NCBI GenBank assembly: GCA_947567595.1
Contig: CANOMQ010000008.1
Coordinates: 48,296-112,295 of the forward strand
DNA: 64,000 bases
Reading direction: 5' to 3'
From: an uncultured Lachnospiraceae bacterium
GTDB taxonomy: Bacteria; Bacillota; Clostridia; Lachnospirales; Lachnospiraceae
In this document: positions 45,929-62,866 of the stretch, piece after piece
How positions within the stretch are numbered: position 1 is the stretch's first letter
How the letters are laid out: each line of letters opens with the position of its first letter
Program-made: the position numbers and the translations under genes
Notes under the pieces: model-generated
The model's input: only the letters and a program-made list of their open reading frames with translations
What the model was told of the DNA's origin: nothing
The model's database searches: none

Positions 45929-45986
45929 TTGTTATTTTTATCACAATCATTGCTTGTATTCTATCACATTGTTAAAAAAAAAGCAA
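45929..45986 (-). promoter_or_regulatory. thl operon promoter with Rex-like operator
   Basis: On the minus strand TTGCTT (45986-45981), 17 bases and TAGAAT (45963-45958) form a sigma-A promoter. Immediately downstream, TTGTGATAAAAATAACAA (45946-45929) matches TTGTTAAN4TTAACAA at 11 of 14 fixed positions. Rex binding just after the transcription start would block the operon at low NADH. The promoter lies inside the last codons of the M23 gene fragment. Confidence 0.75.
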
Positions 45987-46435
45987 TCCCTAAATGCAAC
46001 TTTCCGACGCCATTCCTTCGTTGTTTCATCACGCACTGCCTCACATCTGTTCGCGCTTAAAAACCGCGCGATTTGGTAAAAATCAACCCATATTTCGTTT
46101 CCGTTTTCACGCCGCTCTTCATCGAAAATCAGTTCGAGTCCTACATGCAGATGCACCGTATCAATGTTGTTAACATTTTCCCTGTCACTATACCCGGTAT
46201 GCCCCATGTAGCCAATGACATCCCCCGCCGACACATAGTCCCCCTCTTTTAAACCTTCCGCATAAGGACGGTTTTGTCTTAAATGCGCATAATAATAGTA
46301 TCGTTTTTTATCATGACTGCGGATTCCAATACGCCAGCCGCCATAACGGTTCCAGCCAAGCGCCTCCACATAACCGGATTCGCAGGCGATAATCGGCGTA
46401 CCAAAGTGCGAATAAAACCATATATCGGATTTTGG
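45947..46435 (-). pseudogene. 3' half of an M23-type peptidase gene, cut by the mobile element
   Basis: The frame is open from just after a stop at 46436-46438 to 45947. Host-derived coding begins at about 46404 with GTPIIACESG. It runs on through GWRIGIRSHDKKRYYYYAHL and GYMGHTGY to the zinc motif HLHVGLE. These are the C-terminal LytM/M23 endopeptidase features, but the N-terminal third and a start are missing. The 5' half lies at 62231-62866, about 15.9 kb away, and joins in frame at the same Gly-Thr-Pro. Excision of the element would restore the gene. The thl promoter lies within its 3' end. Confidence 0.88.
46391..46406. other. Attachment-site half, recombinase end
   Basis: On the minus strand TTTGGTACGCCGATT marks the resumption of the M23 reading frame. 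It shares TTGG, AC and CC with the other end (62276-62289). The exact two-base crossover cannot be fixed without an uninterrupted site. Confidence 0.75.
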
Positions 46436-46507
46436 TTAAATTATTATCAATATATCATCTTCCGTATAATTTTTCCAATTTTCGTAAACCAAAGGATTCA
46501 TAACCAA

Positions 46508-46537
46508 AAAAGGTGGAAGACTGCCCTCCCACCTTTT
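46508..46537. terminator. Terminator after the large serine recombinase
   Basis: AAAAGGTGG pairs with CCACCTTTT around 12 bases, just beyond the recombinase stop and before the attachment site. Confidence 0.85.
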
Positions 46538-46543
46538 CAACTG

Positions 46544-48349
46544 TTATAATCCCTTTTTCTCTATGACAACCTTTTCTTCAATCATTTTCCTATATGATTC
46601 ATCAGAATCCATTGATTGATTATTTTTCTTTTGTATGTTATCAACACTTGATATATTCAAGAAACTGTCAATGTCAATCTTAAAATGAATATCTATCTCA
46701 TTACCAGTAATTATAATATTCTCAATGAGAATTGACAACAACTTTTTCTTTACATTCAATGGTGCATCCTCAAATACCTCCCTCCAGACCGGCACCATTT
46801 TTATCGTTTTCAAGTATTCATCCATAGCGAGTTGCTTCGCTTGAATGCTTTTCTCTAACTGTTCAATTTCTCTCTTTATCTCTGTAGCCTTATCTTCCGT
46901 AATCTTTAAACCCTCATTTATATACTTGCTGTCAAACTCACCTTCTCCAATGATAGCCTTATATAAAGCTTGTTTAAAGTATTCAATATTCTTTTGCGTT
47001 TTAATATATTCTATTTTCAGACATTCCAGCCTTTCTTGCTCTGCTTGTGATTCTCCAATGAGAACCTTTTTATTTTTCATAACCTCGTCAGAACAATCAA
47101 TCTGCACCACTCGGTCAAGAAAATTATTTACTTCTTCCAATACTGCCGCCTCCAACTTATATCTGCTTATATAAGATTTAGCGGCACACATTTTTTTATT
47201 TCTCCCCCTCGTGTTGCACTTATAAAAATCGGTGTATGACCTTGAAATCTCACCGTTTACTTTATGTACCTTTTGTGAGGATACCGCAGGTGATATTTTA
47301 CCATGGCAATATCCACACTCTAATAATCCTACCAACAGCAACGGACTTTTCCATGTCCTGTCCTCAATCGGTCTTAAATTGTCGGTATATTTTTTGTACC
47401 TTCTGGCAAGTATTTCTTGTGCCAGTTGCCACCTTTCTTCGCTTACAATCACATAATCAGGATTGGCTTTTTCAGCTAAAATCCATTCCTCCGGCGAAAC
47501 TGCCCTTTGACTTTTCTTTACCTCCAGAAAATCCTCTTTTGTAATATCTGCATTTTGGGGCTTCTCAACCTCTTTCATACGTGTTTTCCCATATGACATA
47601 TACCCTTTATATAAAGGGTTTTTCAGAATACTTCTAACTGTTGATGTATTCCACTTGTTGCCCTTCCTTGTTTTTAACTTCCTATCTTCATTAAGATATG
47701 CAATAAGTCCACTCAAACTCATATTTTCATCTATCAGTTTATTATATATATCTTGTACCACTCCGCTTTCAAATGGCTCTTTTGTAAATTCGTTTATCAT
47801 TCTTCCTTTCCTATCAAGTTGCCCTGTTGGAATCAATGTAAATCCATATGGAACTATGCCACCTGTGAACTTCCCTTGCTTTGTTTTATAATTCCTTCCG
47901 CTGTCTACCCTTGCGGCCGTTTTTTTACTTTCTGTGCTTGCTCCCCAGAACCTTATTATATTCATCAAATTATCTGATGAATTTTCAAAAGTTTGTTGCC
48001 CCTCACAAACACTCCATACTTCCACGCCACATTCTACAATGCGTTTTAGAAGAAAGGGAGTTTCATCATCTTTGCGCCCTAAACGGTCAAACATAAAGAC
48101 AAGAAGCACATCAATATTTTTCTCTCCAACATCCTTGATGACTTCCTGTAGAACCTTGCGTTCGTTAAGCCCTTTATGATATCCAGAAACCCCAGGCTCA
48201 ATGTATTCCTTATTTAATTCCCACTCCTCCCTTTTTTTGATAAATTCCATACAGGCATTCCTTTGCATAGGAATATCATCTTCTATGTTTACCTGTTTCT
48301 TTGTGCTTACCCGATATAAGCACCCCACTCTTTTTTTCTCCAGTTCCAT
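46544..48349 (-). CDS. Large serine recombinase (element integrase)
   Basis: This 601-residue site-specific recombinase has an N-terminal resolvase/invertase catalytic domain (1-150) with the nucleophile in YRVSTKKQ (Ser 15) and the Arg-rich FMFDRLGRK. A recombinase DNA-binding domain follows (about 165-290, YGFTLIPTG, NPLYKGYMSYG). A zinc ribbon (CGYCHGK then CNTRGRNKKMC) and a long coiled-coil C-terminus (about 400-530) complete the large serine integrase architecture. It is nearest the attachment site and should catalyse integration and, with a helper, excision. It overlaps or abuts a small gene upstream. Confidence 0.93.
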   Translation of the reverse strand: MELEKKRVGCLYRVSTKKQVNIEDDIPMQRNACMEFIKKREEWELNKEYIEPGVSGYHKGLNERKVLQEVIKDVGEKNIDVLLVFMFDRLGRKDDETPFLLKRIVECGVEVWSVCEGQQTFENSSDNLMNIIRFWGASTESKKTAARVDSGRNYKTKQGKFTGGIVPYGFTLIPTGQLDRKGRMINEFTKEPFESGVVQDIYNKLIDENMSLSGLIAYLNEDRKLKTRKGNKWNTSTVRSILKNPLYKGYMSYGKTRMKEVEKPQNADITKEDFLEVKKSQRAVSPEEWILAEKANPDYVIVSEERWQLAQEILARRYKKYTDNLRPIEDRTWKSPLLLVGLLECGYCHGKISPAVSSQKVHKVNGEISRSYTDFYKCNTRGRNKKMCAAKSYISRYKLEAAVLEEVNNFLDRVVQIDCSDEVMKNKKVLIGESQAEQERLECLKIEYIKTQKNIEYFKQALYKAIIGEGEFDSKYINEGLKITEDKATEIKREIEQLEKSIQAKQLAMDEYLKTIKMVPVWREVFEDAPLNVKKKLLSILIENIIITGNEIDIHFKIDIDSFLNISSVDNIQKKNNQSMDSDESYRKMIEEKVVIEKKGL

Positions 48350-48350
48350 A

Positions 48351-48614
48351 TCATCTTTCTCCTTTGCGCAATAAATTATTTATGTATGTTTCAACTAATA
48401 ACTTTTGCAATTCCTCTATCATACAGTAATTCTCTTTATCTTCTGTAAAATGCAATCTTACTTTATATCCATTTTTACTATCTTCTTTTGTAAGTACATT
48501 ATTTTCCTCTCTGGTATAGCACCCTACTTTCCCCATACCTTCAGAAGTTCTTTTTTGTACATTTCTATGCACAATATCATTACAGTATGAGTCTTTCACA
48601 AGCATCTGATTCAT
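48351..48614 (-). CDS. Small protein upstream of the recombinase
   Basis: This 87-residue protein is not firmly recognised. Its C-terminal half (YKVRLHFTEDKENYCMIEELQKLLVETYINNLLR) has the look of the short TnpW-like proteins found beside TnpX-type recombinases of Tn4451-like elements. The Cys- and charge-rich N-terminal half is unlike them. It begins after AAAGGAGAA and ends one base from the recombinase start, so the two are coupled. A role as a recombination directionality factor is possible but untested. Confidence 0.65.
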   Translation of the reverse strand: MNQMLVKDSYCNDIVHRNVQKRTSEGMGKVGCYTREENNVLTKEDSKNGYKVRLHFTEDKENYCMIEELQKLLVETYINNLLRKGER

Positions 48615-48824
48615 AGAAAATTCTCCTTTAAAAATTTTCTATTTCTATTCAAATGCTTGTTTTACGGTATACCTTTACATCCATTCGCTTTAGCACAAAC
48701 CTTTTTGAAACGGTGACATTGTAACGCTTCTTCTCAAACAAGTTGTGAACGAAGAGTGAACTTTAAAAAACTTCATTTTTATAAATATTTATTGCTTCTC
48801 TATACTTCCGCTCAAAAAATATAC

Positions 48825-48860
48825 AAAAAAGACAGCCACCATACAAGCGACTGCCTTTTT
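48825..48860 (-). terminator. Terminator after the methyltransferase gene
   Basis: Minus-strand AAAAAGGCAG and CTGTCTTTTTT arms. The sequence is almost the same as that at 53036-53072, including the loop flanks. Confidence 0.8.
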
Positions 48861-48882
48861 CATCTAAACACTTTTTAATTCT

Positions 48883-50121
48883 CTATTTTAGTTGCTCCAT
48901 ACCATTATACTTCCAGTTACTGCTTTCCTCGCCTTGGTAGTTCCCTCTGCACCAGATGTATTCCCTGCCGAATGTTTGTTTCCCATCAGCATCAACAGTA
49001 CCTTTCCCAAAATCACCAATGCACTCTACATAATATTCAATGTCCTTATCTTGATACCTTCTGCTGTTTTTATCATTTTCCTCAAGCACATCAAAATCAT
49101 GGTATGCCCCCTGCAAGTCTGGCAGTACCTTTAAATCTTTATCCGTCTTGCTATATTCTTCCTCATATCTATATTTCGGGTTATAGTCCGACTTGATGAA
49201 ATATTTTATTTCCCCAAATTCATCCATCATGTCATTATGTAATATCTCCGTCATTTCATGAACCATACCTATGGGAAATCCCATCATATACGGCGCATCC
49301 TTCCCACCAAATAATGTTGCCGGGTGGTATGGCGGGTCAAAATACCATAGCTTATTCTTTTTGCTCATTGCTTCATCTTCTGGATGTTCTGCCCCGTCCG
49401 AATCTTTATATGGCTTGCCGTTATATTTCTTTATCAGTTCCCTATAGTCCAGACTCTCTATAATGACATTACGTTTTTTGATAATGTCATGTACTTTAGG
49501 TATACGCTTTTTTGCAAGCTCAATAATATTTCTAATCTCCTCTTTCTCGTCCTTATCCCCTATATTTAAACTATAGTTAGCCGTTCCGGGTGCCGTGCAT
49601 CCATTAAATTCTGACTGTACCACCCAGTATGTCATAGCCGCCGCGAGCAAAGGCTCCACTATTTTATCAGAAATCCTATCATCATTATTATATTCTTTTT
49701 TTATTTCACTTATCGCTGACGCCGAACTATTGCAACGGTTGTACACAAAAACCTCGAATAATTCCTCGCACATACAGCCGCCGATTTCCTCTATCAGCTT
49801 TATCAGCTTATCCGGCTCATCCCTGCACGCCTCAAAATAGGAAACAACACCATAATCCAAATCGTTTATGACTATCATCTCAAACCATCCTTCAGGTACA
49901 GACAGGCCAATCTTTCCACCCCCGGTAAACGCGTCAATGAATATATCCGCCTTATTCCCGTCATCCTCCATCCTGACTGCCATGTTGAACAGCCTGTTCA
50001 TCAAATATTTTCCAACAAATTGTTTTCCGCCAAAATATCCGAGCCCGAATTTTATTTTTACGGTATCCATCCATTTTCGCCTGTCACTGACAGGGGAGAA
50101 CTTATAATCATACAGCCTCAT
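48883..50121 (-). CDS. D12-class (Dam-like) DNA adenine methyltransferase
   Basis: This 412-residue enzyme should methylate adenine N6 in DNA. The N-terminal FGLGYFGGKQFVGK corresponds to the D12-class start motif, FIDAFTGGGKIGLS is the SAM-binding motif I, and LWYFDPPYHPATLF holds the catalytic DPPY. A large target-recognition insert lies between them. No restriction gene is adjacent. Its start overlaps the stop of the DUF927-like ATPase gene by four bases, so the two are made together, hinting at a replication or self-marking role. Confidence 0.88.
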   Translation of the reverse strand: MRLYDYKFSPVSDRRKWMDTVKIKFGLGYFGGKQFVGKYLMNRLFNMAVRMEDDGNKADIFIDAFTGGGKIGLSVPEGWFEMIVINDLDYGVVSYFEACRDEPDKLIKLIEEIGGCMCEELFEVFVYNRCNSSASAISEIKKEYNNDDRISDKIVEPLLAAAMTYWVVQSEFNGCTAPGTANYSLNIGDKDEKEEIRNIIELAKKRIPKVHDIIKKRNVIIESLDYRELIKKYNGKPYKDSDGAEHPEDEAMSKKNKLWYFDPPYHPATLFGGKDAPYMMGFPIGMVHEMTEILHNDMMDEFGEIKYFIKSDYNPKYRYEEEYSKTDKDLKVLPDLQGAYHDFDVLEENDKNSRRYQDKDIEYYVECIGDFGKGTVDADGKQTFGREYIWCRGNYQGEESSNWKYNGMEQLK

Positions 50122-52442
50122 GCTTCATTCTCCTTGTCCTCTTTTTTATCGCTGTCTTTCATGCCCTTACTGTCAACAATATCTTTTTCCAATACAATCT
50201 CCGCAAGGGTGACATTATTCGCCCCTCGTGAACCTTCACCCTTTTTCCATATAATCCTGTCTTCATATTTTTTCAGTATAAGGCTTTCAAAATCACCCAA
50301 CAGAACATTCCCGAAGATTTCCTGCAATATTTCCTTTGCTTCATTCCTGTTTTTTGCGCTTTCAAGCCGTTCTATACAGACTGTCAATTCATCATCTTTC
50401 AATTTTCCGCCATGTACCAGAACCCATTCAACCAGCTTGTTTACCCTTATGTGGATAATATATTGCTTTTCCGTTTCTTCCAGCTTTCCTATATAACCGC
50501 CCTTGCCATTCCATTTTTTATTTTCTGTGAAGAATACGCCCCTGTGTCCTTTTATAAAATCGATAATATCCGCATAAATGTCAATGTCAGAATCCGCACT
50601 AAGGCGGCTCATTTTTTCAACTGCATTGTCAATCAATATTCCTAAGACGTTCTCACTTTTTGTATGGAATGGTACTTTGCCACCGTTCAAATAGCTGTTG
50701 ACACTTTTTTCAAGATAGCTGTTTCCCTTCTTACTGCCCCCGCCTTTTCCCAGACGCTCCTCAATCTTTTTAAAATCTGCCTTATCCAGATTATTGCCTA
50801 TCCAGCCATAATCCGCTTCTACCTCCATTCCCGAAACACTTTCTTCTATTGCCGCCCTCAACAAAATCTCAAGCGTTGTAATAATAAGCGCAAATCTTTT
50901 AGAACAGGAACGCAACATGCCCTCAAGGTTCTTCTTTTTCTCTACCACATGCAATATTGCTGATATGATACTGTTTATTTCAGTATACATATCCGTGACA
51001 AACTCCTTATCCTTCGTAAGCTCCCCTGCAAGATAATTTATCAACATTAAAATGCCATGCCCATAATGTGTATACGCCACTTCTTCGGTAGTCTCTGCCA
51101 TCCTGCTGTCATAAAACAAATCCTCCGGCTCAATTCTTAACTCAATGAACCGCCTGTACTGCCCTAAATCCCTGCTTTCCTCTAACAGCTTATCCAGCAT
51201 CGGCTCAACACTGCTGCTTATAACAGGCCCATATGTCCTTTTGCCTGACAACTCGCTTCCCTGTCCTGCAAGCCTTTCTTTTACCTTGCCCTCATACTCC
51301 CTGAATATATCCATAAGCAATGCATGGCGTTTTGAGTTTTCTGATTTCCCTTCAATCTTAAGCATCCTCTCGTCAAGTATGTATGGCAATACCAGCCTTT
51401 CTGACCTTGCTATCTCCATTGCGTTATCCGTGTCGGTAAAGCTTCCTTCCAACATCCCCGGATCGCCAAACATACTCAATGCAAAATGGCTGATTATGCT
51501 CTTTCCGCTCGCACGTTTCCCAACAATATTCATGTTAATATTGTTTTCTTTCGTATATGGCAACAACTGCCTTATTACACCCGTACACGCTGTAGCAATT
51601 ATCAGCGCATCCGTATCAGAATAATGTATCAGCCGCGAAAAATCCACAAGCCAGTCCTCATAATCCACGGCTGTGTCTTCCGCATTCCTCAGCCCAGCCG
51701 CAACCTCATTTGCGCATTCTCCATGGAACATGTCAATTTCATTCGCCACACAGTAAATCTTGTCATATTTAAAAATCTGTACTCCGCTATAAAAATCCCA
51801 GCCCAATTCCCTGTAACGCTTAATCTGCAAATCTTTCTGGTAGCACAATTTTGAAAGAATGTCACATATTGCTTTGCTCGCCCTGTCAATATCACTGTTA
51901 ATCCCTATAATCCTCTCTACTTTCGAGGTTATAAATTCTTCCTCACTTTTCTCATTGTCAAGCACAATATCCCTGTACGCAAACATATCTATGTCAACAT
52001 AAAACCCATCTCTGTTTAAAATCCTTATCGTAAATTTCGACCCTTTCGACACGTCTTTTATGTCAATATCCTCATATACCTTTACAGACAAGCAGTCTCC
52101 CCTGTCTGCTTCTGGCTCATCATCCTCTTCATCTTCTTCCATTGAATCCGGCTTGTCGTTTTTCCCGTCCTGCTCCCCTGATTCCGGCTTGGCCTCTTCT
52201 CCATCTTTCTTTTCCGGGTTCGGCTTGGTTTCCTCTCCATCTTCCTTTTCCGGGTTCGGCTTGGCTTCCTCCCCATTTTTTTCCACTAAATCTGTTTTAA
52301 CGTTCTTTTCAACATTGTCGTTAAACACTAATTTTGGTTTCTTTCCTTCCGTATCGCCATCTATCTTCCTGCTGATTTCTGACAATCTATCTATAACCTC
52401 TCCTAATCCCTGATTTTTTCCCTTTGCTAACTGTTCTCCCAT
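50118..52442 (-). CDS. DUF927-like P-loop ATPase with acidic repeats
   Basis: This protein of 774 residues from ATG 52442, chosen for GGGAGG five bases ahead, has three parts. Residues about 57-105 are four 12-residue acidic repeats of the type GEEAKPNPEKED. Residues about 180-300 include GWDFYSGVQIFKY. The ATPase core follows, with Walker A GKRASGKS near 308-315, then SFTDTDNAMEIARSERL and the Asp/Glu of YILDERML. This resembles DUF927 superfamily helicase-like proteins of mobile elements, which may act in replication. The 3' end is coupled to the adenine methyltransferase. Confidence 0.75.
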   Translation of the reverse strand: MGEQLAKGKNQGLGEVIDRLSEISRKIDGDTEGKKPKLVFNDNVEKNVKTDLVEKNGEEAKPNPEKEDGEETKPNPEKKDGEEAKPESGEQDGKNDKPDSMEEDEEDDEPEADRGDCLSVKVYEDIDIKDVSKGSKFTIRILNRDGFYVDIDMFAYRDIVLDNEKSEEEFITSKVERIIGINSDIDRASKAICDILSKLCYQKDLQIKRYRELGWDFYSGVQIFKYDKIYCVANEIDMFHGECANEVAAGLRNAEDTAVDYEDWLVDFSRLIHYSDTDALIIATACTGVIRQLLPYTKENNINMNIVGKRASGKSIISHFALSMFGDPGMLEGSFTDTDNAMEIARSERLVLPYILDERMLKIEGKSENSKRHALLMDIFREYEGKVKERLAGQGSELSGKRTYGPVISSSVEPMLDKLLEESRDLGQYRRFIELRIEPEDLFYDSRMAETTEEVAYTHYGHGILMLINYLAGELTKDKEFVTDMYTEINSIISAILHVVEKKKNLEGMLRSCSKRFALIITTLEILLRAAIEESVSGMEVEADYGWIGNNLDKADFKKIEERLGKGGGSKKGNSYLEKSVNSYLNGGKVPFHTKSENVLGILIDNAVEKMSRLSADSDIDIYADIIDFIKGHRGVFFTENKKWNGKGGYIGKLEETEKQYIIHIRVNKLVEWVLVHGGKLKDDELTVCIERLESAKNRNEAKEILQEIFGNVLLGDFESLILKKYEDRIIWKKGEGSRGANNVTLAEIVLEKDIVDSKGMKDSDKKEDKENEA

Positions 52443-53035
52443 AGTAACCTCCCCGGTATGCTTTTCTAACATTATACTACAAACACGCACATTTTCCCAT
52501 GCCCATTCTTGAAATTCTTGGCAAGTGTATGCCAAAAATTACATACTGCTCCATAATATGCCCCAAATGCCGCCAGCCCACATCATGAAACAGCCATAAT
52601 ATACAATGCGTTATGATTCCCATAAACAGAGAACAGTTCATACGCCCCTATCCGGGTCATTCTTTAGCAGGTAAATATTTTTACTGCCTGTGGCGGCTAT
52701 TTCAATAAACCCTTGCTATGCTTTCTGAAACAAATATTGTCAACCGATTCAACCGTACTGTTTTCTGATTTTCTAACCAGTCCATATTATGAACCATTTT
52801 TCATGCCATCTCATATATGCCGCACAATCCATACAAAAAAATCCACTCATGCAAAAACCCTTATTTTTCTTCCCTTTTTCAAAAAATATCTCCCACCCAC
52901 CTATTCCAAAACCTCCAATTTAAGAAAAATTTATTAGATTCAATGTAACATGAATCAGAATTGTGAAAATCATTCACATGATACAAAAACCTCATAAATA
53001 ACCAACCCTCTCATTTCCGCCATATATGTTGACAC
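52443..53035. other. Gene-free stretch upstream of the DUF927-like gene
   Basis: About 590 AT-rich bases without a supported gene on either strand. The short open frames here lack ribosome sites. It should contain the promoter of the ATPase-methyltransferase operon, but no convincing -35/-10 pair was found. There are many scattered CAT and TTTC runs, and no tandem repeat. Confidence 0.6.
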
Positions 53036-53072
53036 AAAAAAAGACAGCCACTTTATAAGCAACTGCCTTTTT
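53036..53072 (-). terminator. Terminator after the small-gene pair
   Basis: Minus-strand AAAAAGGCAG ... CTGTCTTTTTTT hairpin with G-U pairing, adjoining the stop at 53076. It is nearly identical to the hairpin at 48825-48860. Confidence 0.8.
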
Positions 53073-53075
53073 GTT

Positions 53076-53270
53076 TCATATACTCTTGTTTAATCTCTTT
53101 CTATATGCCTTGCATATTTCCTCCGCAAGCACTACATCATCATTCGTCTGGAAATCATTTGGCGTTTCAATGGTAGCCACCTGCCGGGTCTGCCCTGTAG
53201 AAGGCATATAAACAAATACCCCGATTATATTGCCGCTTATCTTCGGTATCACTCGTAATTTAGTTGCCAT
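53076..53270 (-). CDS. Small uncharacterised protein, 64 aa
   Basis: This unrecognised short beta-rich protein (LRVIPKISGNIIGVFVYMP) has a helical C-terminus (VVLAEEICKAYRKRLNKSI). AAAGGGG precedes the ATG at a suitable distance. The start overlaps the preceding gene by 22 bases, so it is probably translated from the same message. It is typical of accessory genes of integrative elements. Confidence 0.65.
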   Translation of the reverse strand: MATKLRVIPKISGNIIGVFVYMPSTGQTRQVATIETPNDFQTNDDVVLAEEICKAYRKRLNKSI

Positions 53271-54727: not shown

Positions 54728-54784
54728 AATGTTTGCCTCTTTCTTTCCGTGCCTTAGCACTAACTTTATTTATCTTATACATAT

Positions 54785-55236: not shown

Positions 55237-55297
55237 TATTTTATTGTTTTATTTTTAATCCAATATGTTTTTCAATTATCCTCATTGAGTTAAACCA

Positions 55298-55337
55298 ATC
55301 AAAAAGACTGCCCTTTTTAAAGACAGTCCTTTTTGAT
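55298..55337. terminator. Terminator after the lipoprotein gene
   Basis: ATCAAAAAGACTG and CAGTCCTTTTTGAT arms, with T runs on the minus strand, 60 bases after the stop. Confidence 0.85.
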
Positions 55338-55396
55338 GTATATTGCAATTTAATTGTATATCCTGTTTTATACAGGAAATCATATTTCTTGTCTGC

Positions 55397-57022
55397 TTAT
55401 TCCGCACTTGTTACAAGCCACTCACCGGAACTTTGTACGTCAATTTTCACTTGGAATGTATTTTCTATATTCTCAATATCCAAATGAGTGTTTGCGCCAA
55501 AATCTGTATGCTCATCTATATGTTTACTCTCCCAATCATTAGAAATTCTATTAAACTCCTCCTCACCTATTTCTCGTGTTGTTCCATTTTCAGTTAGTGT
55601 ACCTCCATAATATTCTTCTCCACCTTCACTCCAGCTTCCGTATAATTCTTTTACAGAAAATGTTGTTCCATCATAAAAGTATAAAGACGTGATTGAATAT
55701 CCATCATTGCTTATTTTGCCGAGATATGTTCTATCCGACTGATTTACCCCTTTAATGTTCGCCATGCTTTCTGAACCTAAATCAACAGTCGTACTATTCC
55801 AGTTACCATCTTTGTATGATAGCAAAAGTTCTTGTTTTCCGTCATTGTTTAAATCATTTAAACCAAAATAAAATTTTTCACCTTCATATCCATATGAAGT
55901 TCCATAATCATCACCTATGGGTAAAGTCCGCTCATCGTTGATGTACTGCCTTAATATTTCAAGGCTGTTAACTTTCTCCTGTGACACTTCTCCTTTCGTT
56001 ATAATGCCTGTTCCGTCATGCTTGACAATATCCACTTTCTTTATTTCTACAGGTACAGATTGTCCGTCACTCATAGCTGTTGCATAGGCATTGAGATAAT
56101 TGACCATTTCCTCTAAGGTGCATGGAGTCATATCGTAGAAACAGGTGTAGGCTAATGTATGTTGATGTGTTTCTTTTTCTATATATGCTTCATATTCTTC
56201 GTCTGCAACTTCTCCTGTTTGCTCTCCGTTTTCCACAATGTAGAACATTCCACTACTATCAAGTGGATCGGGTTTTGCCAATGCACGTTCATAAATCTGT
56301 TTTAAACTTCCTTCAGTAAAATCATACTCGTTCCATAAAGTAGCCGCCCACCAATATTCATCGCCGCATTGTACTTCTGTATTAAAGTATTCCTTTACAA
56401 CTTTTATTGTACCATCATTTTGCTCTGATAAACTGCTATTTTCCCGCAGATATTTCTCTTCCGAACAAACTAACGCCGTTTTATTATTGTTCCACCCATA
56501 GACCTCAAAAGATGAGGGTTCTGTATTACTGAATATGTAAAGATAAGGAATTCCCTCTCCAGAAAAATCACCTACTATTACATTACTTCTATTTGTCTCA
56601 TATTCATTAATATATGCATCAACTTGATTTATATGGAATGGTTCATTCCAAGATATAATATCCGATATTGTATTTTCGTCATATCCACCACGAAAACTGA
56701 AATCCCCTGCCAAACCATCTGCTATCAGCTGTGCAAATGCTGTTGCCTGTTCTGCTGTCATTTTACAGTTGGCAGTATCACCATAGTAAGGCATCTCACC
56801 TAATGCAGATTGTACTTTTTCTTCCTGTGTAATTTCCGGTATAGTTTCTTCTTTCTTCGTGCTTTCTTCCTCTGTTACCTCTGCTTCTTCTGTTGTTTCT
56901 GCTGTTTCCTCAACACTTGTTGTATCAGGAATTTCAGCTTGTGAGGCTGTTTTATCCCCACAAGCTGATAAACTGAATACAAGTGTCAAGGCTGTCATAA
57001 GTGCTACTGTTTTCCTTTTCAT
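55397..57022 (-). CDS. Large lipoprotein of the element cargo operon
   Basis: Unassigned 541-residue secreted lipoprotein. The signal peptide ends in the lipobox LSAC (Cys 21). An acidic Thr/Glu-rich linker follows (about residues 30-70). The remainder is rich in Tyr, Asn and Glu and has a Ca-binding-like DLNNDGKQELLLSY (about 375-388), resembling FG-GAP/VCBS or EF-hand loops. An Asp-rich strand pattern recurs. The ATG follows AAAAGGAG. It is last in the operon with membrane and lipoprotein genes; a surface role is likely but function is unknown. Confidence 0.78.
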   Translation of the reverse strand: MKRKTVALMTALTLVFSLSACGDKTASQAEIPDTTSVEETAETTEEAEVTEEESTKKEETIPEITQEEKVQSALGEMPYYGDTANCKMTAEQATAFAQLIADGLAGDFSFRGGYDENTISDIISWNEPFHINQVDAYINEYETNRSNVIVGDFSGEGIPYLYIFSNTEPSSFEVYGWNNNKTALVCSEEKYLRENSSLSEQNDGTIKVVKEYFNTEVQCGDEYWWAATLWNEYDFTEGSLKQIYERALAKPDPLDSSGMFYIVENGEQTGEVADEEYEAYIEKETHQHTLAYTCFYDMTPCTLEEMVNYLNAYATAMSDGQSVPVEIKKVDIVKHDGTGIITKGEVSQEKVNSLEILRQYINDERTLPIGDDYGTSYGYEGEKFYFGLNDLNNDGKQELLLSYKDGNWNSTTVDLGSESMANIKGVNQSDRTYLGKISNDGYSITSLYFYDGTTFSVKELYGSWSEGGEEYYGGTLTENGTTREIGEEEFNRISNDWESKHIDEHTDFGANTHLDIENIENTFQVKIDVQSSGEWLVTSAE

Positions 57023-57035
57023 TGGTTTTCTCCTT

Positions 57036-57941
57036 TTATTGACTGCCTATTACCTCTTGTTTTAAATGTTCAAATTCCTCTTTTGTAAGCATACCATTTT
57101 CATATAGCTTAGACAACTCCGACAAAGAAGTTACTTTATTTGTATTAACTCCCGTACTTTTTCTTACCTCATTAACTGTATGCTCTACAGAAACAGGATT
57201 CACAATATTTACATATAATTCCTGTACCTCACTTACTGCTTTGTAGAAATCCTTTATTTCCTGCTTGCCTAATTCAGATGCCAAGAAAGCTACTGTCAGG
57301 GAAGTAAACTCTATACAAATATTTGTCCTCTTAAGGAAAAAAGCATGTAATACAAAATAAATCACCAGAAAGAAACCTATGACAATAGATGCCAACACTC
57401 CCAAGGCAAATGCTATCCAAAATAAAGCTATTATACCTTTCAGAACTATTTGGGATTCCACATCAGGCATTGCAAATACCATGTTAATCCAGCGATACCA
57501 AGCTATTTCTATAGTAATCGATAAAAATGCTAAAATTAACATCCAGATGTGCGACAATGTTCCTACTTTAATTCCTTTCATTTCGCTTGCTATAATCCTG
57601 TGCTGTACATTTGCCCTAAACGCAAATATCCATTTCTTCTGATATACCCTGCCTATAAAATAGACCGCCTTATCTGTCAAAATGCAGAAACCATTTTCCT
57701 GTATGCCTTTTATCAGCAAATTGGTTGCGTTTTTAATTCCCAATACAGCATATATTTTTTCCTGCTCATTGCCAACAAACTTATGTAGTTTGTTGTAGAA
57801 ATCATCAAAATCAATTTGCCTGTTCGTATCATCAAAAGGCTTATCACTTGACACTTTCTGATGTTGTCGTACTGCAAATATCAAAAGTACTATTGTACAT
57901 AAAATTAGAATGATACCTAAAAAAATCCAAAATACCCCCAT
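57036..57941 (-). CDS. Membrane protein with C-terminal SHOCT domain
   Basis: This 301-residue protein has an N-terminal membrane helix (about 4-24), a soluble beta-rich part that resembles a PH-like fold (NGFCILTDKAVYFIGRVYQKK), and membrane segments around 130-155 and 165-215. The final 30 residues form the short SHOCT oligomerisation motif, ELSKLYENGMLTKEEFEHLKQEVI. SHOCT tails are known on many bacterial membrane and secreted proteins. The function is unknown. It lies between the large lipoprotein and a small membrane protein gene. Confidence 0.78.
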   Translation of the reverse strand: MGVFWIFLGIILILCTIVLLIFAVRQHQKVSSDKPFDDTNRQIDFDDFYNKLHKFVGNEQEKIYAVLGIKNATNLLIKGIQENGFCILTDKAVYFIGRVYQKKWIFAFRANVQHRIIASEMKGIKVGTLSHIWMLILAFLSITIEIAWYRWINMVFAMPDVESQIVLKGIIALFWIAFALGVLASIVIGFFLVIYFVLHAFFLKRTNICIEFTSLTVAFLASELGKQEIKDFYKAVSEVQELYVNIVNPVSVEHTVNEVRKSTGVNTNKVTSLSELSKLYENGMLTKEEFEHLKQEVIGSQ

Positions 57942-57973
57942 TTTATATTACTCCTTATCTCACTGCTCGCTTC

Positions 57974-58309
57974 TCATTTTACAGATTTCTTACGGCAAAT
58001 CCACTTAATCGCAATTATAATGATTGAAACTACTGCCGTAATGCTTATAATGGGAAGATAGCCTCCAGATATCGTAACCATTTCTTTTATAATTTCTATA
58101 AAGAACATAATTAAATAAACTATCGCTACCACAACAGCAGACTCCATTGCAAAACTGTTTGACTGTTTTTTATTCTGCTCCATATCATCAGGCATATTGT
58201 CAAACAAGTGCATATTTGCCTGATTTCTCTTTTTAGCAGCATTTATGATTGGAAATGCAATTAAAATAATAATTGAACAAATCGCCAAAATAAGATAAAT
58301 GAAATCCAT
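57974..58309 (-). CDS. Small membrane protein, 111 aa
   Basis: Unrecognised. An N-terminal hydrophobic helix (4-22) is followed by a polar loop with basic and Asn-rich residues (NAAKKRNQANMHLFDNMPDDMEQ), then two further helices (about 53-75 and 82-102) and a basic end. It lies between a small lipoprotein and the SHOCT protein in one operon. Confidence 0.72.
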   Translation of the reverse strand: MDFIYLILAICSIIILIAFPIINAAKKRNQANMHLFDNMPDDMEQNKKQSNSFAMESAVVVAIVYLIMFFIEIIKEMVTISGGYLPIISITAVVSIIIIAIKWICRKKSVK

Positions 58310-58323
58310 AGTTAATTCCTCCC

Positions 58324-58506
58324 TTAATTTACAATGTCCTTTATAATGTCGCTTCCAGCCTTTAAGTAATAATGATATTTACAGTATCCTTCCTCATAAA
58401 TCTCATCATCACAGCCGCTTTCTTTACATGTGTTCGTTATGCTACATGCTGTAAGCTGTAGCACTATACCGAGTCCTATAAACATGCTTAATACCTTCTT
58501 TTTCAT
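58324..58506 (-). CDS. Small cysteine-rich lipoprotein, 60 aa
   Basis: The signal sequence ends in LTAC (Cys 21). The mature part is only 40 residues, with three further Cys in ITNTCKESGCDDEIYEEGYCKYHYY, a spacing like a tiny disulfide-linked or metal-binding knot. AGGAG precedes the ATG. First gene of the cargo operon, behind a strong promoter. Confidence 0.75.
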   Translation of the reverse strand: MKKKVLSMFIGLGIVLQLTACSITNTCKESGCDDEIYEEGYCKYHYYLKAGSDIIKDIVN

Positions 58507-58553
58507 TGATTAAACTCCTTTCTCCTTATGTACTCACACAAAACACATTGGGT

Positions 58554-58582
58554 ATTATATCATCTTTCCGCATACTTTTCAA
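58554..58582 (-). promoter_or_regulatory. Promoter of the lipoprotein/membrane operon
   Basis: TTGAAA (58582-58577), 17 bases, TATAAT (58559-58554) on the minus strand, a near-consensus promoter. The divergent XRE gene shares this region and may repress it. Confidence 0.85.
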
Positions 58583-58653
58583 TGCTTTTAGCAAATTCTC
58601 CATATCCTATAGCATGTCGATATCACGTACAATCGTTACATGGAGGTGCTCAT

Positions 58654-58947
58654 ATGATAAATGGTTTAGGCCAGCGGCTACAGGAACAGCGCATATTACG
58701 AAATCTTTCCCAGAAACAGGTTGCTTCCTCTATTGGCGTGTCTGCATCCGTCATATCAAACTATGAAAGCGGAGAAAGGACACCCAGCGTTGAGATACTC
58801 ATATCGCTTGCGCATTTATACCACTGTTCCGCTGATTATCTGCTTGGTATTGATAAATCTAATACTGTTAAACTACTTGATGTTTCTATGCTGAATGATA
58901 AACAATACCAGTTATTACAATCCTTTTTACTAAGCTTACAGGAATAG
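58654..58947 (+). CDS. XRE-family HTH repressor
   Basis: This 97-residue DNA-binding protein has a complete Cro/C1-type domain (LGQRLQEQRILRNLSQKQVASSIGVSASVISNYESGERTPSVEILISLAHLY, residues about 5-57, shown here as one domain) and a short helical tail. The ATG at 58654 follows TGGAGG; earlier in-frame starts have no site. It is the only plus-strand gene of the element and is divergent from the cargo operon, the typical position of an element repressor. A hairpin with ten-base arms overlaps its stop (58933-58961). Confidence 0.85.
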   Translation: MINGLGQRLQEQRILRNLSQKQVASSIGVSASVISNYESGERTPSVEILISLAHLYHCSADYLLGIDKSNTVKLLDVSMLNDKQYQLLQSFLLSLQE

Positions 58948-59018
58948 CAAACCTGTAAGCTGAACTAAATACATTTGCTAATCTTCTTTTCTATCACCGT
59001 CTTTCTGCAATCAGTGTG

Positions 59019-59270
59019 TCAGACCCGCCCTTTCAAACCAGCCAGCATGTCATGCATTTCCTGCATATCTGTTTTTTCTATTGTTGTCAGATAACTTTGC
59101 ATAAGGCTTATACTGCACATCTCATAAGAATCTTCAACTCCGTTCACTGTTTTTGTTCCTTGATATACCAGTTCAAGAAGTCCGATCAGGTTGTGAATCT
59201 TCGACTCGACCATGTCGATCATATCGTCAAGCCTGCCCAATTCCTTTCTTAAGTTTTCTATTTCCTCCAT
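59019..59270 (-). CDS. Small coiled-coil protein, 83 aa
   Basis: Unrecognised. The start at ATG 59270 was chosen after AAAGGAGGGG. The first 45 residues form a heptad-like helix (IENLRKELGRLDDMIDMVESKIHNLIGLLELV), followed by a second helix rich in Met. It probably multimerises. It is monocistronic with its own near-consensus promoter. Confidence 0.7.
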   Translation of the reverse strand: MEEIENLRKELGRLDDMIDMVESKIHNLIGLLELVYQGTKTVNGVEDSYEMCSISLMQSYLTTIEKTDMQEMHDMLAGLKGRV

Positions 59271-59302
59271 ACTGTCCCCTCCTTTCTTCATAATGGGTGG
59301 GG

Positions 59303-59331
59303 ATTATAACGCTGTGGAAGTATAAATGCAA
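59303..59331 (-). promoter_or_regulatory. Promoter of the coiled-coil gene
   Basis: TTGCAT (59331-59326), 17 bases, TATAAT (59308-59303), with CAGCGT just ahead of the -10 as in two other element promoters. Confidence 0.8.
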
Positions 59332-59855
59332 GCATTTCCTTTCTACGTATTATCTCTTTTCCATACGTACCACATGGCTACTCCTTTGTATCGATATATC
59401 TCATATCAGTTTCCTTTTCATTCACTTACTTTTGGGAGCGTCCATGTATATCTATCTACCATGCCAATTTTCATGCATGATTTATTTATTCTGAAAGAGT
59501 GACATAGCCATGACAATGAAAAAGACAGGAGACTGTTGTATACCCCTGCCCTTCCTTGTGTCCTGCATATTCATATTGCTTATGCTTAAAAATCTTACAT
59601 GAAATTCTGTTGCCTTCTTCTATTTTCCATGCTTTCCGACTATCTAACCATATGTTCTCTTCCAATTCCGTATTTGTATGTCAGATTATACCTTTGTTAT
59701 TTATTCCCCAAACTTATTGCCTTACTATTCCTCCATGCCCAACATTTTTCTATAAAGCATATTCTTCATTCAAATCTATGCTATTTCAATATTTCTTAGT
59801 TTGTTTACATTTCCTCATACAATGTTTACATCTAAATCCATTATGTTAGTATGTC
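59332..59855. other. Gene-free spacer
   Basis: About 520 bases between the coiled-coil gene promoter and the resolvase stop. No frame has a ribosome site. An AAAAAGACAGGAGACTGTTG-type imperfect hairpin near 59520 may be a terminator for the downstream direction. Nothing else was seen. Confidence 0.55.
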
Positions 59856-60431
59856 TTAAAAGTCTATTGGCTTATTATCTTCCTCATGTTCCGCCACCCT
59901 CCTATAAAATGTACTCCTGCTGATATTCAGTTGCTTACTTGCATAAGTAGCAGATATATTTCCAGACTTCCATTGATGATACATTTCATCAAATGTATCT
60001 AACTGTTTTGCTGGTCTGCCCTTATACTTCCCGTGTTCCTTTGCAATCTCTATTCCTTCACGTTGCCGTTGCCTTATATACTCTCTTTCCAACTCCGCTA
60101 CCGCCCCGAATATCGTAAGCATGAACTTACCAGCCGGAGTGTTTGTATCAATACTTTCTTTTTGGCTGACAAATTGTACATGCTTACTGTTTAACTGCTC
60201 TGTCAGTTCAAGTAAATCTTTTGTATTCCTCGCAAACCGAGAAATACTTTCCACAACTACAGAATCGCCCTCACGCACAAAGTTCATCATTTCCAACAGG
60301 GCAGGGCGGTCTGTATTCCTGCCGCTCATTTTATCAAGGTATACTTTATCAACCTCCAGTGACTTCATGATTTCTTCCTGACGTGCTGTATTTTGTTCTT
60401 TTGTACTCACTCTGACATATCCAATCTTCAT
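59856..60431 (-). CDS. Small serine resolvase/invertase
   Basis: This 191-residue resolvase-family recombinase has its catalytic Ser 9 in GYVRVSTKEQ, a conserved Arg in SISRFARN (about 68-72), the E-helix LTIFGAVAELEREYIRQRQREGI, and a C-terminal helix-turn-helix (SATYASKQLNISRSTFYRRV). Such proteins resolve cointegrates or invert short segments. It acts independently of the large integrase and no transposase is near, so its target within the element is open. Confidence 0.93.
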   Translation of the reverse strand: MKIGYVRVSTKEQNTARQEEIMKSLEVDKVYLDKMSGRNTDRPALLEMMNFVREGDSVVVESISRFARNTKDLLELTEQLNSKHVQFVSQKESIDTNTPAGKFMLTIFGAVAELEREYIRQRQREGIEIAKEHGKYKGRPAKQLDTFDEMYHQWKSGNISATYASKQLNISRSTFYRRVAEHEEDNKPIDF

Positions 60432-60666
60432 AATGCCTGCTCCTTTCTCAACTAGACTGATAAATGTGAGATACCAAAAATTTTCATCCTTTCAAAAAAT
60501 GTTCCAAAAAGCTATACCCTACCCATGCAGAACAATCATACACTTTTTATACACCAAAATTGTTCCAGTAGAGCAGGAATACTATTTTTGAAACACTTCT
60601 TGAAACATATTTCATATATATCCATTCTTATTTCAGAGCAGATTTACAGGCACATTTTAGCAAAAT

Positions 60667-60716
60667 AAAATGTCAGGAGAAATCCATATACCGCATATGA
60701 CTTTCTACTGACATTT
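60667..60716 (-). terminator. Imperfect long hairpin after the SprT-like gene
   Basis: Arms around AAATGTCAG and CTGACATTT, extended inward by AGAAA/TTTCT and CATAT/ATATG. It is a degraded relative of the 43-base palindrome at 61909-61951; both are followed by similar CTTGT(G/A)AGTGTAC text. The rest of 60432-60743 has no supported gene. Confidence 0.7.
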
Positions 60717-60743
60717 CCATTTCTTGTGAGTGTACCTACAAAA

Positions 60744-61406
60744 TCACTTTTCCACTTTTACATACTGCTCATTACAATCCATACAAAGTACACGAATCTC
60801 TTTCGTTGCCCGAAAGCTGTTCCCACAACAGGGACATTGATATTTCCGTGTGCTTGTCTTTCTTTTCCCTGTTTGAATCCCCTTTCCGTCCACGCCGCCC
60901 TTTCCATTATCATCACCAGAGCCATTCCCTCCAATGCCAGCAATCCCCATAACACCGTCACGGTTTATATTCATAGGTTTTTCTATTCCATTGTTTTGTA
61001 ATACCTCTATAAACTCCTGTGACGGCTCTGTTACCGAATAGCCTATATACTTTGCATAACTGATTATCAATCCCCTTGCCTCTGCTTCCCTCTTGAAATT
61101 CTTGTTATGGTAACGTTCACTCTGGCTTGTATCTGCTATATTGTTTAGCTGACAGTAGAAATGGATTAACTCATGCTGTAAGGTCGCCATGACGTTTTCT
61201 ATATTTCTATCCAAGTGCTCCGCACTTATATTTATCTCGTTAAAATGGTTTTCCTCTGCTTTCCATACCTTACCCACTGTAAAATGTCCGTATGTCCTTG
61301 GGCTACTCATAATCGTTATCACGACTGGCGGTAACTCATTGTCAAAATAAACCTCATTGAGAACCTCAAAGCCATACTCTAATACTTCCTGCATATTTTT
61401 TAACAT
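60744..61406 (-). CDS. SprT-like zinc metalloprotein with zinc ribbon
   Basis: This 220-residue SprT/Spartan-like protein has the HExxH motif QHELIHFYC (His 78, Glu 79, His 82) and a downstream His at YHNKNF (about 100), the usual third ligand. A Gly/Asp-rich linker (about 155-180) leads to a C-terminal zinc ribbon, CPCCGNSF then CMDC. The start was set at ATG 61406 after GGAGG. Related proteins cleave DNA-protein crosslinks or handle replication damage. Its presence in the element suggests a replication or transfer role. Confidence 0.85.
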   Translation of the reverse strand: MLKNMQEVLEYGFEVLNEVYFDNELPPVVITIMSSPRTYGHFTVGKVWKAEENHFNEINISAEHLDRNIENVMATLQHELIHFYCQLNNIADTSQSERYHNKNFKREAEARGLIISYAKYIGYSVTEPSQEFIEVLQNNGIEKPMNINRDGVMGIAGIGGNGSGDDNGKGGVDGKGIQTGKRKTSTRKYQCPCCGNSFRATKEIRVLCMDCNEQYVKVEK

Positions 61407-61447
61407 CCCTATGTACCTCCATGTCATTTCATTTTTTATCTTTCTTC

Positions 61448-61476
61448 ATTCTAACGCTGTAGGTCATGCCTGTCTG
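61448..61476 (-). promoter_or_regulatory. Candidate promoter of the SprT-like gene
   Basis: Minus-strand CAGACA, 17 bases, TAGAAT (61453-61448), with CAGCGT directly ahead of the -10, the same box as at 54785 and 59303. Confidence 0.6.
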
Positions 61477-61565
61477 TGGTGGTAATGTACGGGTTATCAG
61501 TTGGTTTTTATGCGATATGCAAGAAAAAACAGTACCGACCGTTAATTGACAATACTGTTTTTATT

Positions 61566-61875
61566 CTCCATGCTATCCTCTATTAAAATCTATTGTCTGT
61601 CTCAAATAAACTTAAAATTTTATTTTATTGCTTTATTCATTTCCCTATATTGTTTAATCAGTTTTGTATTGTCCTTTCATATTTTTTTATCTGCTAATTT
61701 TTTTCAAAACTTTCATCTACACTTCACTTACTAAGGAAATTATGCTGGCAGTTTTTCCCCACTGCATGGGTTTATGTATACATATTTTTACCCTACTGCA
61801 TACGAACTGAAATTTCTCACCCAATTTTTTTACCACATCTATACGCTTATCATGCTTTAGGAGAAAATCATACGC
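61566..61875. repeat. Intergenic direct repeat, copy B
   Basis: About 310 bases matching 54921-55236 imperfectly, with the best block around TTATGTATACATATTTTT and CTTATCATGCTTTAGGAG. Lies upstream of the SprT-like gene, as copy A lies upstream of the 165-residue gene. Confidence 0.82.
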
Positions 61876-61908
61876 CTATGTTGTTATACACATCTTTAAA
61901 AAATAAAA

Positions 61909-61951
61909 TGCCGGGATTCTGCCATATACTGTATATGGCAGAATCCCGGCA
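61909..61951. repeat. 43-base palindrome with one-base loop
   Basis: Perfect 21-base arms, starting TGCCGGGATTCTGCCATAT, flank a single T at 61930. The sequence is far more GC-rich than its surroundings. A T-rich run follows on the minus strand, so it could be a terminator. The element end lies about 340 bases away, so a structural or replication role is also possible. Confidence 0.85.
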
Positions 61952-62230
61952 CTTTTCATTCTTGTAAGTGTACTCACAAAATTACATACGGATAATAGAA
62001 TCAGTACTGATTCCATTATCCATATCGGACACTATTATAATTAAAATATAATCGACACACATTATCACCTAAAAATATTTTTACCCCCTCTCCTCACCTA
62101 TATTCATATTATCCCCTCAATCAAAGTCTCCTAACTTACTAATTCTATTTCCAAAAATCCAGTATTTATGCGGCTTACAGCAATTAGCACACCTAATTTT
62201 CAGCTAACTAAAACATAATACATGCTAATT
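61952..62230. other. Element terminus, no gene
   Basis: About 280 AT-rich bases without a supported gene, between the palindrome and the end of the split M23 frame. The text AAGTGTACTCACAAAATTACATA near the start resembles the end of the SprT-like gene's 3' region. Confidence 0.55.
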
Positions 62231-62866
62231 TCAGCTATTGTAACAAGGTTGAATTTCTATATAGTTTTTTATACTATTTGGTGTGCCAATGAGTCCCATC
62301 ATGTCATGTCCCAAATGCTGCCTTTTGTAGCCGAATGACCGCGACACACCGAAGTCATCATAGTCCTGATACTCAAATCCTTTTGCAATCGGAGAAAATG
62401 CCTTCAAGCCGTATTTTTTCTCCATTTCCCCTTGTTCGTTTTCGATTTCGTACTCCCCGACCATTCCGCCAAGCACGGCGGTGTACGCTTCATAATAATA
62501 AGAAAAATACTGGTACTTTTGGGCAAAACTTTCCTTTGTCTCCTCCTTTGCGCTAAGCTTTGCCGCCGCCTCGTCAATGTAGCCCTCCGACTTTTTCCCA
62601 AACTCACCACCACCCTTTACGGCAGCATAGGCAAGCAGCGTAATCCAGTCAAGGTGCGTTTCGCTCTGATAGCTTTCCACGTCCAAAAGACATGCCTTTT
62701 TCATCGCCTCCGCCGTTACGTTAAAATCCACCCATTTAATCTTGCCGTTATCTGTCTGCGTAACCAAAACACTCTCATGCGCGCCCTCATATACATAAAT
62801 CCCCACTGCCAGCAGAAACACCGCCATAACAAGACAGGCAAACATTTTGTTTTTCTTATTTCCCAT
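62231..62866 (-). pseudogene. 5' half of the M23-type peptidase gene
   Basis: From ATG 62866, behind a GGCGGA site, the frame encodes a short cytoplasmic start and a membrane/signal segment (MFACLVMAVFLLAVGIYVYEG). A roughly 150-residue helical domain follows, then GVSRSFGYKRQHLGHDMMGLIGTP, the beginning of an M23 domain with its first metal His/Asp (HLGHD). After Gly-Thr-Pro the frame runs into element DNA for 15 codons and stops. The rest of the catalytic domain, including HLHVGLE, lies at 45947-46404. The protein as it stands cannot be active. Confidence 0.88.
62276..62289. other. Attachment-site half, distal end
   Basis: On the minus strand TTGGCACACCAAAT ends the host part of the M23 gene. 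Compared with TTGGTACGCCGATT at the other end, bases TTGG, AC and CC are shared. Confidence 0.75.

What the first reader, a model, noticed from the sequence alone, without database searches (positions are those of the whole stretch)
45947..62866. A 15.9-kb element splits a peptidase gene, and excision would rebuild it
Two in-frame halves of an M23 gene, in the same orientation and broken at the same Gly-Thr-Pro codons, enclose a large serine recombinase and cargo. This defines both ends of the element precisely. It also makes peptidase activity a possible phase-variable trait dependent on excision.
Basis: partly seen in the sequence, partly recalled or inferred. Interest (0 to 1): 0.85.

Follow-up and report, generated by a model that had tools for sequence, protein, structure and literature searches.

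The report
Mobile element splitting a sporulation gene
A 15.9-kb mobile DNA element sits inside a gut bacterium's probable spore-formation gene in such a way that cutting the element out would rebuild the gene exactly, and related bacteria show the same gene split again and again by different elements, which suggests it is rebuilt on purpose when a spore is made.

Summary
An M23 peptidase gene is cut at its Gly-Thr-Pro codons by a 15,885-bp low-GC element with a large serine recombinase (LSR). Relatives keep the gene whole, so excision would rebuild it. Neither half holds all the predicted zinc ligands.

"Phase variation" is not the best reading. Of 32 congeneric genomes with any part of the gene, 20 keep it whole, 11 have it split and 1 is unclear; three carry two insertions in it. 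Six other genera have it split too. Splits fall at three sites in the catalytic core and involve at least four LSR groups.

The gene looks like a mother-cell sporulation gene. Of 53 family genomes with it, 51 have SpoIVA, against 84 of 147 without it; a sigma-E/K-type -10 box lies upstream in 25 of 26 congeners tested. In two congeneric pairs, split copies are under strong purifying selection; in the better of them the insertion predates the species split.

Best reading: a skin/SP-beta/gin-type sporulation gene-intervening element with a new target gene, excised in the mother cell. Excision, and the factor that would direct it, are not shown.

The parts
62290..62866 (-). N-terminal part of the M23 gene (ATG 62866; N-terminal hydrophobic segment, N-terminal domain, HxxxD motif HLGHD); an in-frame TTG lies at 62872
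   Evidence: the same gene is whole in relatives; motif by alignment to solved M23 enzymes
62899..62906 (-). CATATATT, a -10 box of sigma-E/sigma-K type, 32 bases before the ATG (-35 region near 62920-62927 is an imperfect match)
   Evidence: CATANNNT in 25 of 26 congeners tested; 57 of 80 named relatives against 199 of 988 control ORFs in the same window
62280..62289 (-). attL core TTGGCACACC
46405..62289 (.). intervening element, 15,885 bp including one core copy
   Evidence: junctions against whole-gene relatives; GC drop
46395..46404 (-). attR core TTGGTACGCC
45947..46402 (-). C-terminal part of the M23 gene (HLH motif, stop)
   Evidence: PF01551 E 4.9e-9; 95% identical to the same stretch of G002
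46544..48349 (-). large serine recombinase, 601 aa (type A1), beside attR
   Evidence: PF00239, PF07508, PF13408; phrog_95 integrase E 1e-78; 42% identical to the LSR that splits the same gene in G148
48351..48614 (-). 87-aa ORF directly upstream of the LSR, no Pfam or PHROGs match; a directionality factor is not excluded
48883..50121 (-). D12-class adenine DNA methyltransferase (cargo)
   Evidence: PF02086, phrog_56
50118..52535 (-). DUF927 / primase-helicase-like protein (cargo)
   Evidence: PF06048, phrog_8841
58528..58947 (+). HTH_3 repressor-like regulator
   Evidence: PF01381, phrog_8
59856..60431 (-). small serine recombinase of resolvase/invertase type, 191 aa
   Evidence: PF00239 E 1e-43
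60744..61427 (-). SprT-like zinc protein (cargo)
   Evidence: PF10263, phrog_6361

Best explanation
The insert is a sporulation gene-intervening element. A large serine recombinase put it between the two halves of the metal site of an M23 peptidoglycan peptidase gene that is transcribed in the mother cell during spore formation. Vegetative cells and spores keep the element. During sporulation the recombinase, with a directionality factor, recombines attL with attR in the mother cell; the gene is rejoined in frame and active peptidase is made there. Because the mother cell dies, the element is not lost from the lineage. Shown by sequence: exact split, LSR, empty sites in relatives, repeated splits by different LSRs, association with SpoIVA, promoter box, selection on split copies in two congeneric pairs. 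Inferred: mother-cell timing, excision, the directionality factor, and the peptidase's role in spore building.
For: Whole gene in relatives and exact junctions. SpoIVA in 51 of 53 family genomes with the gene against 84 of 147 without, Fisher p 1.4e-8. CATANNNT upstream in 25 of 26 congeners tested, and in 12 of 12 congeners' spoIVA genes taken as positive control. In 80 named relatives, in the same -150..+30 window as the control, the box occurs in 57 and the full ATA-N15-17-CATANNNT pattern in 29, against 199 and 22 of 988 other ORFs; with the longer windows it is 68 and 33 of 80, against 27% and 2.2% in shuffles. G029/G030: element genes near both ends differ at pS 0.26-0.33, flanking host genes at 0.19-0.29, so the insertion is older than the species split; yet the two parts differ by 8.5 and 3.5 nonsynonymous changes where about 116 and 139 are expected without constraint (p 2e-17 and 9e-24). 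The doubly split G007/G036 pair behaves likewise. No consistent speed-up of amino-acid change on split branches. Rejoined frames are open in the 12 of 17 split genomes that could be checked. Published parallels: prophage in spsM, three-recombinase gin in gerE, skin in sigK.
Against: No excision product was found: 0 matches to the predicted circle joint in viral contigs. No directionality factor was identified, and sigma-E-like sites inside the G000 element are near chance (6 against 4.2 expected). The selection test rests on two congeneric pairs, not on the window's own copy, whose insertion could be recent. In G007/G036 the N-side flank could not be compared and the pairing of G036 contigs rests on binning (7% contamination). 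G010 (96% complete) and G012 (90%) have SpoIVA but no match to either half, so the gene is not essential everywhere. G017 (97% complete) and G006 lack the first N part, and G037 and G014 the C part, in their assemblies; some of these may be real losses. The SpoIVA association is not corrected for shared ancestry.
Confidence: 0.78

Rival explanations
1. The conserved M23 codons are just a convenient landing site. The gene is knocked out for good and its halves are remnants.
For: GTP is a conserved stretch of the fold and LSRs often use conserved genes (recalled); some congeners lack the gene; four split genomes lack one part in the assembly.
Against: Halves keep open frames and metal-ligand motifs; dN/dS of split-split pairs is 0.02-0.05, within the range of whole-gene pairs (0-0.10), in pairs where the insertion appears ancestral.
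Confidence: 0.12
2. Excision is ordinary phage or element induction in growing cells, so the peptidase is a heritable on/off trait.
For: Type A2 elements are prophages: the G221 one has head and tail genes and the G007 one an endolysin. One A2 LSR probably moved recently between species (pS 0.046 against 0.356 for the host thiolase gene). SP-beta itself has both routes (PMC4191935).
Against: The gene follows SpoIVA and has a mother-cell promoter box, so it should be silent in growing cells. Heritable excision would lose the element, yet an ancestral insertion persists in G029/G030.
Confidence: 0.07
3. The pieces are expressed separately and assemble into a working two-chain peptidase, so no excision is needed.
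For: Would also explain constraint on the pieces.
Against: In G006, G007 and G036 the middle piece is under 30 codons. The conserved promoter box lies upstream of the N part. N parts carry unrelated element-coded tails.
Confidence: 0.03

Closest known systems
skin element in sigK (Bacillus subtilis, Clostridioides difficile)
   Same: LSR-bearing element splits a sporulation gene of the mother cell; excision rejoins it (PMC4191935, PMC5025042, passages read)
   Different: Target here is an M23 peptidase, not a sigma factor; no directionality factor found; three sites and several LSR groups hit one gene
SP-beta prophage in spsM (B. subtilis)
   Same: A2 elements at the same site are prophages with structural or lysis genes, like SP-beta in spsM
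   Different: The window's own element shows no phage structural gene among the ten of its ORFs scanned with PHROGs
gin in gerE (Bacillus cereus)
   Same: Non-phage island with three serine recombinases (PMC5595907, passages); the type-B and G059 elements of this gene also have three LSRs
   Different: The window's element has one LSR plus a small resolvase; no counterpart of gin's GirX was recognised
yin in yabG (Clostridium botulinum), vfbin in spoVFB, vrin in spoVR
   Same: Element inside a sporulation gene (PMC10747680 and PMC4191935, passages)
   Different: Other genes; in the passages read each is one element in one gene

Membership tests
sporulation gene-intervening element (skin type) | element splits a coding sequence that relatives have whole | tested here: met
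sporulation gene-intervening element (skin type) | the split gene is a sporulation gene expressed in the mother cell | tested here: met
   by proxy only: SpoIVA association p 1.4e-8; CATANNNT promoter box against 988 control ORFs in the same window, with spoIVA as positive control. No expression data
sporulation gene-intervening element (skin type) | element encodes a site-specific (serine) recombinase | tested here: met
sporulation gene-intervening element (skin type) | repeated core at both ends and in-frame rejoining | tested here: met
sporulation gene-intervening element (skin type) | a directionality factor under sporulation control | tested here: inconclusive
   no candidate with a sigma-E site above chance in the G000 element; 87-aa ORF next to the LSR not characterised
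sporulation gene-intervening element (skin type) | excision during sporulation, in the mother cell only | not testable with these tools
   needs DNA from sporulating cells
prophage | phage structural and lysis genes inside the element | tested here: not met
   none among the 10 ORFs of the window element scanned with PHROGs; smaller ORFs were not scanned there. Met for the A2 element of G221
integrative conjugative or mobilisable element | relaxase inside the element | tested here: not met
   none among the 17 ORFs of the window element scanned with Pfam; met for the G283 element (PF03432)

The most novel reading that the evidence does not exclude
One mother-cell peptidase gene is a family-wide docking gene. 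At least four recombinase groups have independently put prophages, a relaxase-bearing island, other islands and a 2.8-kb near-minimal unit into its catalytic core, and some species carry two different elements in it at once, so that two separate excisions would be needed before the enzyme can be made in each sporulating cell. The interrupted state would then be a tolerated, possibly useful, timing lock on peptidoglycan cutting during spore formation.
Probability: 0.45. Interest if true: 0.85.

Novelty: new variant of a known kind. Interest (0 to 1): 0.68.

Why it matters
Known target genes of this class in the passages read are sigK, spsM, spoVFB, spoVR, gerE and yabG. A peptidoglycan peptidase in Lachnospiraceae would add an enzyme whose metal site itself is divided, in common gut spore-formers. 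Many insertions of unrelated elements into one gene make an open question testable by comparison: do mobile elements pick mother-cell genes because excision there costs neither host nor element? Species with two elements in one gene would show whether excisions are ordered. The recurrent att sites also give a set of recombinases that share one conserved target.

Tried and rejected
Searching IMG/VR for relatives of the window's LSR (3 candidate stretches, none confirmed) and of the A2 LSR (none), and for the predicted joint of the excised circle (0 hits). Looking for sigma-E/K promoters inside elements to find a directionality factor: G000 6 sigma-E-like sites against 4.2 expected, G148 5 against 3.2, G059 3 against 1.6; G312 has 3 against 0.6 (and 2 sigma-K-like against 0.3), but none was tied to a gene. 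Upstream alignment of the A2 LSRs showed no shared promoter that I could recognise. The sigma-K family model does not separate sigma factors here (0 of 38 over its cut-off, 38 of 38 with matches), so whether sigK is itself split was not settled by name, although the best sigma match of each genome is an unbroken frame. NCBIfam gave no name for the peptidase (best hits far below cut-off). A chimeric assembly was rejected: one contig, same site in other genera. Nine paper searches listed no paper whose title or abstract start describes this gene as a target or gut relatives of skin (open-licence library only, most hits seen as listings).
Full report
1. The observation. The window is bases 48296-112295 of contig 8 of a 4.16-Mb genome. 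On the - strand an M23 peptidase gene begins at ATG 62866, runs to ...H-D-M-M-G-L-I-Gly-Thr-Pro, and is then cut. The rest, Gly-Thr-Pro-I-I-A-C-E-S-G..., resumes at 46402 and ends at 45947. The shared core TTGG[C/T]AC[A/G]CC lies at 62280-62289 and 46395-46404, so the insert is 15,885 bp. Its GC is 37.5%; the left flank (10 kb) has 47.6%, the short right flank (1.7 kb) 45.2%. The C half alone matches Peptidase_M23. In the whole gene of a relative the domain spans the cut. Alignment to solved M23 enzymes puts HxxxD in the N half and the HLH motif in the C half; that these hold the zinc ligands is established knowledge of the family (recalled). Neither half can hold the full metal site.

2. Empty site. 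The nearest named relative with a whole gene is Lachnospiraceae bacterium COE1 (its protein is identical to that of G002); the G002 gene is one frame of 351 codons, 89% and 95% identical to the two halves. So relatives have one gene, not two, and the finding's own refuter is not met.

3. The gene is split again and again. I searched all 38 genomes held for the genus with each half: 31 of 38 match the N half, 30 of 38 the C half, 32 match at least one. Reading ORFs and junctions gives 20 whole, 11 split and 1 (G024) whose contig ends exactly at the Gly-Thr-Pro codons and cannot be judged. Site A (the window's site): G000, G037, G031, G015, G014, G007, G036, G006. Site B (about 27 codons earlier, before Asp-Phe-Gly): G029, G030, G017, and also G007, G036, G006, which therefore carry two insertions (gene in three pieces). 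Missing parts: G037 and G014 have no C half, and G006 and G017 no first N part, in the assembly. In the wider family, 397 genomes searched with the C half gave 209 with some match and, by hand count of the listing, 111 at E 2e-56 or better. Seven of the 111 are split (G000, G221, G283, G250, G312, G059, G148); G378 is at a contig edge and not counted. Five of the six new ones are cut at the Gly-Thr-Pro codons; G059 is cut just before Gly-His-Asp (site C). As a comparison, SpoIVA was found in 36 of 38 congeners with no clear internal break; in four it is partial, at contig ends or in pieces on two contigs.

4. The recombinases are of several kinds. A1: G000 and G148, 42% identical. A2: 516-aa enzymes in seven congeners, with G221 and G250 58-63% identical to one of them. 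C: G283 and G312, 49%. B: three tandem LSRs in six congeners. G059 has another three-LSR set, up to 38% identical to B, which can be counted with B or apart; hence at least four groups. Other between-group identities are mostly 20-28%. The cargo differs too: the G221 element has head and tail genes and the G007 A2 element an endolysin, so A2 elements are prophages; the G283 element has a relaxase; the G312 insert is about 2.8 kb with the LSR and small ORFs. Counting one event per LSR set and genus, I infer at least nine insertions (A1 two, A2 three, C two, B one, G059 one); no tree was built for this.

5. It looks like a sporulation gene. In 200 family genomes (nearly one per genus) 53 matched the N half, one of them weakly (G043, E 2e-5), and 135 have SpoIVA. 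Of the 53, 51 have SpoIVA; of the other 147, 84 do (hand tally of the two lists; Fisher p 1.4e-8; shared ancestry is not corrected for). The two exceptions are G043 and G200 (87% complete). Within the genus the test says little, since 36 of 38 have SpoIVA. Upstream of the gene, 25 of 26 congeners tested have CATANNNT, a -10 box of the sigma-E/sigma-K type (recalled consensus); G001 is the exception, and G013, G014 and G018 were missed by my extraction. For G016, G031 and G015 the box picked automatically is not the one in the aligned column. The spoIVA genes of 12 of 12 congeners taken have the same -10 box, with a different -35 region. In 80 named relatives (the best 80 of 568), in the window -150..+30 around the first start codon of the frame, 57 have the box and 29 the full ATA-N15-17-CATANNNT pattern; 988 other ORFs of the same loci give 199 and 22. 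With longer windows (150-603 bases) the figures are 68 and 33 of 80, against 27% and 2.2% in shuffles of the same windows. In G000 the -35 region is an imperfect match.

6. Split copies are under selection. In G029/G030 the insertion is ancestral: near both junctions the element's genes differ at pS 0.26-0.33 (three recombinases, ZorA/ZorB-like pair, a 557-aa ORF), and the flanking host genes at 0.19-0.29. Only the middle cargo differs more (0.59-0.81), which looks like later replacement. The N part differs by 8.5 nonsynonymous changes (116 expected without constraint) and the C part by 3.5 (139 expected). G007/G036, split twice, differ by 14 (155 expected) and 5 (170 expected); element genes there differ at pS 0.33-0.50 (one small ORF at 0.73) and host genes on the C side at 0.31-0.49. 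The N-side flank could not be compared, because the G036 contig there is nearly identical to the G007 one and is probably misplaced; the other G036 copy was used. Amino-acid change is not consistently faster on split branches than on whole-gene branches: of 18 comparisons (one of them repeating another, the misplaced G036 copy) the split branch has more changes in 9, fewer in 5 and equal in 4, by at most 3. Rejoined frames are open in the 12 split genomes checked, of 17 in all: four more lack a part, and G059 was not resolved by the pattern used. The HxH motif is present in each C half looked at. A gene dead since the insertion would not look like this in G029/G030.

7. How it most likely works. 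Transcription from the mother-cell promoter reads only the N part while the element is in place. During sporulation the LSR with a directionality factor recombines attL and attR, the frame is restored through Gly-Thr-Pro, and the enzyme is made in a cell that will die, so the lineage keeps the element. This is the published behaviour of skin and SP-beta, and gin is rejoined during sporulation (passages of PMC5025042, PMC4191935, PMC5595907). In C. difficile the LSR is constitutive and the directionality factor is sporulation-specific, so the absence of a sigma-E site at the LSR here is not a contradiction; but no factor was identified. Excision has not been observed.

8. Known or new. The class is known. 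The passages read name sigK, spsM, spoVFB, spoVR, gerE and yabG as targets. Nine paper searches listed no paper whose title or abstract start puts an M23 gene or Lachnospiraceae in this role, within an open-licence library. What I have not seen described is one gene taken at three sites by unrelated recombinases, with two elements in it at once. One search listed one further sigK insertion paper (PMC10745906), which I did not open.

A matched-window promoter control was added, GC of the flanks was recomputed, the number of LSR groups was lowered from five to at least four, and caveats on G007/G036, on missing parts and on listings were added.

Noticed in passing
L105:6126-8190 (G007), also G036, G006, G029, G030: Three-recombinase elements carry a ZorA/ZorB-like (MotA/MotB-type) pair beside the next M23 part (PADLOC on the G007 pair; the others by ORF similarity). 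No other Zorya gene was looked for.
   Followed up: partly
L117:16586-19057 (G017): At the place of the ZorA/B-like pair G017 has a TIR-NLR-like defence protein (PDLC03015, E 2e-141).
   Followed up: no
L220:5086-7935 (G312): A 2.8-kb near-minimal intervening unit: one LSR and small ORFs; a good start for finding a directionality factor.
   Followed up: partly
L111 and L108 (A2 recombinases of G006 and G036): These LSRs differ at pS 0.046 while the host thiolase gene differs at 0.356, so the prophage probably moved recently between species.
   Followed up: partly
L106 (G007:C3) and L109 (G036:C102): Contigs nearly identical although other shared loci differ at pS 0.3-0.5; probably a misplaced contig in one assembly. 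The other G036 N part (C49) was used in the tests.
   Followed up: partly
window 62889-63988: In the split congeners whose upstream side was listed an hpf-type ribosome-hibernation gene lies just upstream of the M23 gene; here a small ORF and a MarR gene lie there instead, so the upstream side was rearranged while the promoter box stayed (the name hpf is recalled).
   Followed up: partly
G010, G012 (no locus): Congeners of 96% and 90% completeness with SpoIVA but no match to either half, so the gene can be absent.
   Followed up: no
G241:C10:75783-76851: An ortholog whose matches fall in several short frames without an obvious insert; a pseudogene or sequencing error.
   Followed up: no
L113-L116 (G029 and G030 elements): The sugar-transport-like middle cargo (function guessed from sequence, no family search) differs far more (pS 0.59-0.81) than the element's ends, as if cargo was exchanged inside a fixed insertion.
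   Followed up: partly
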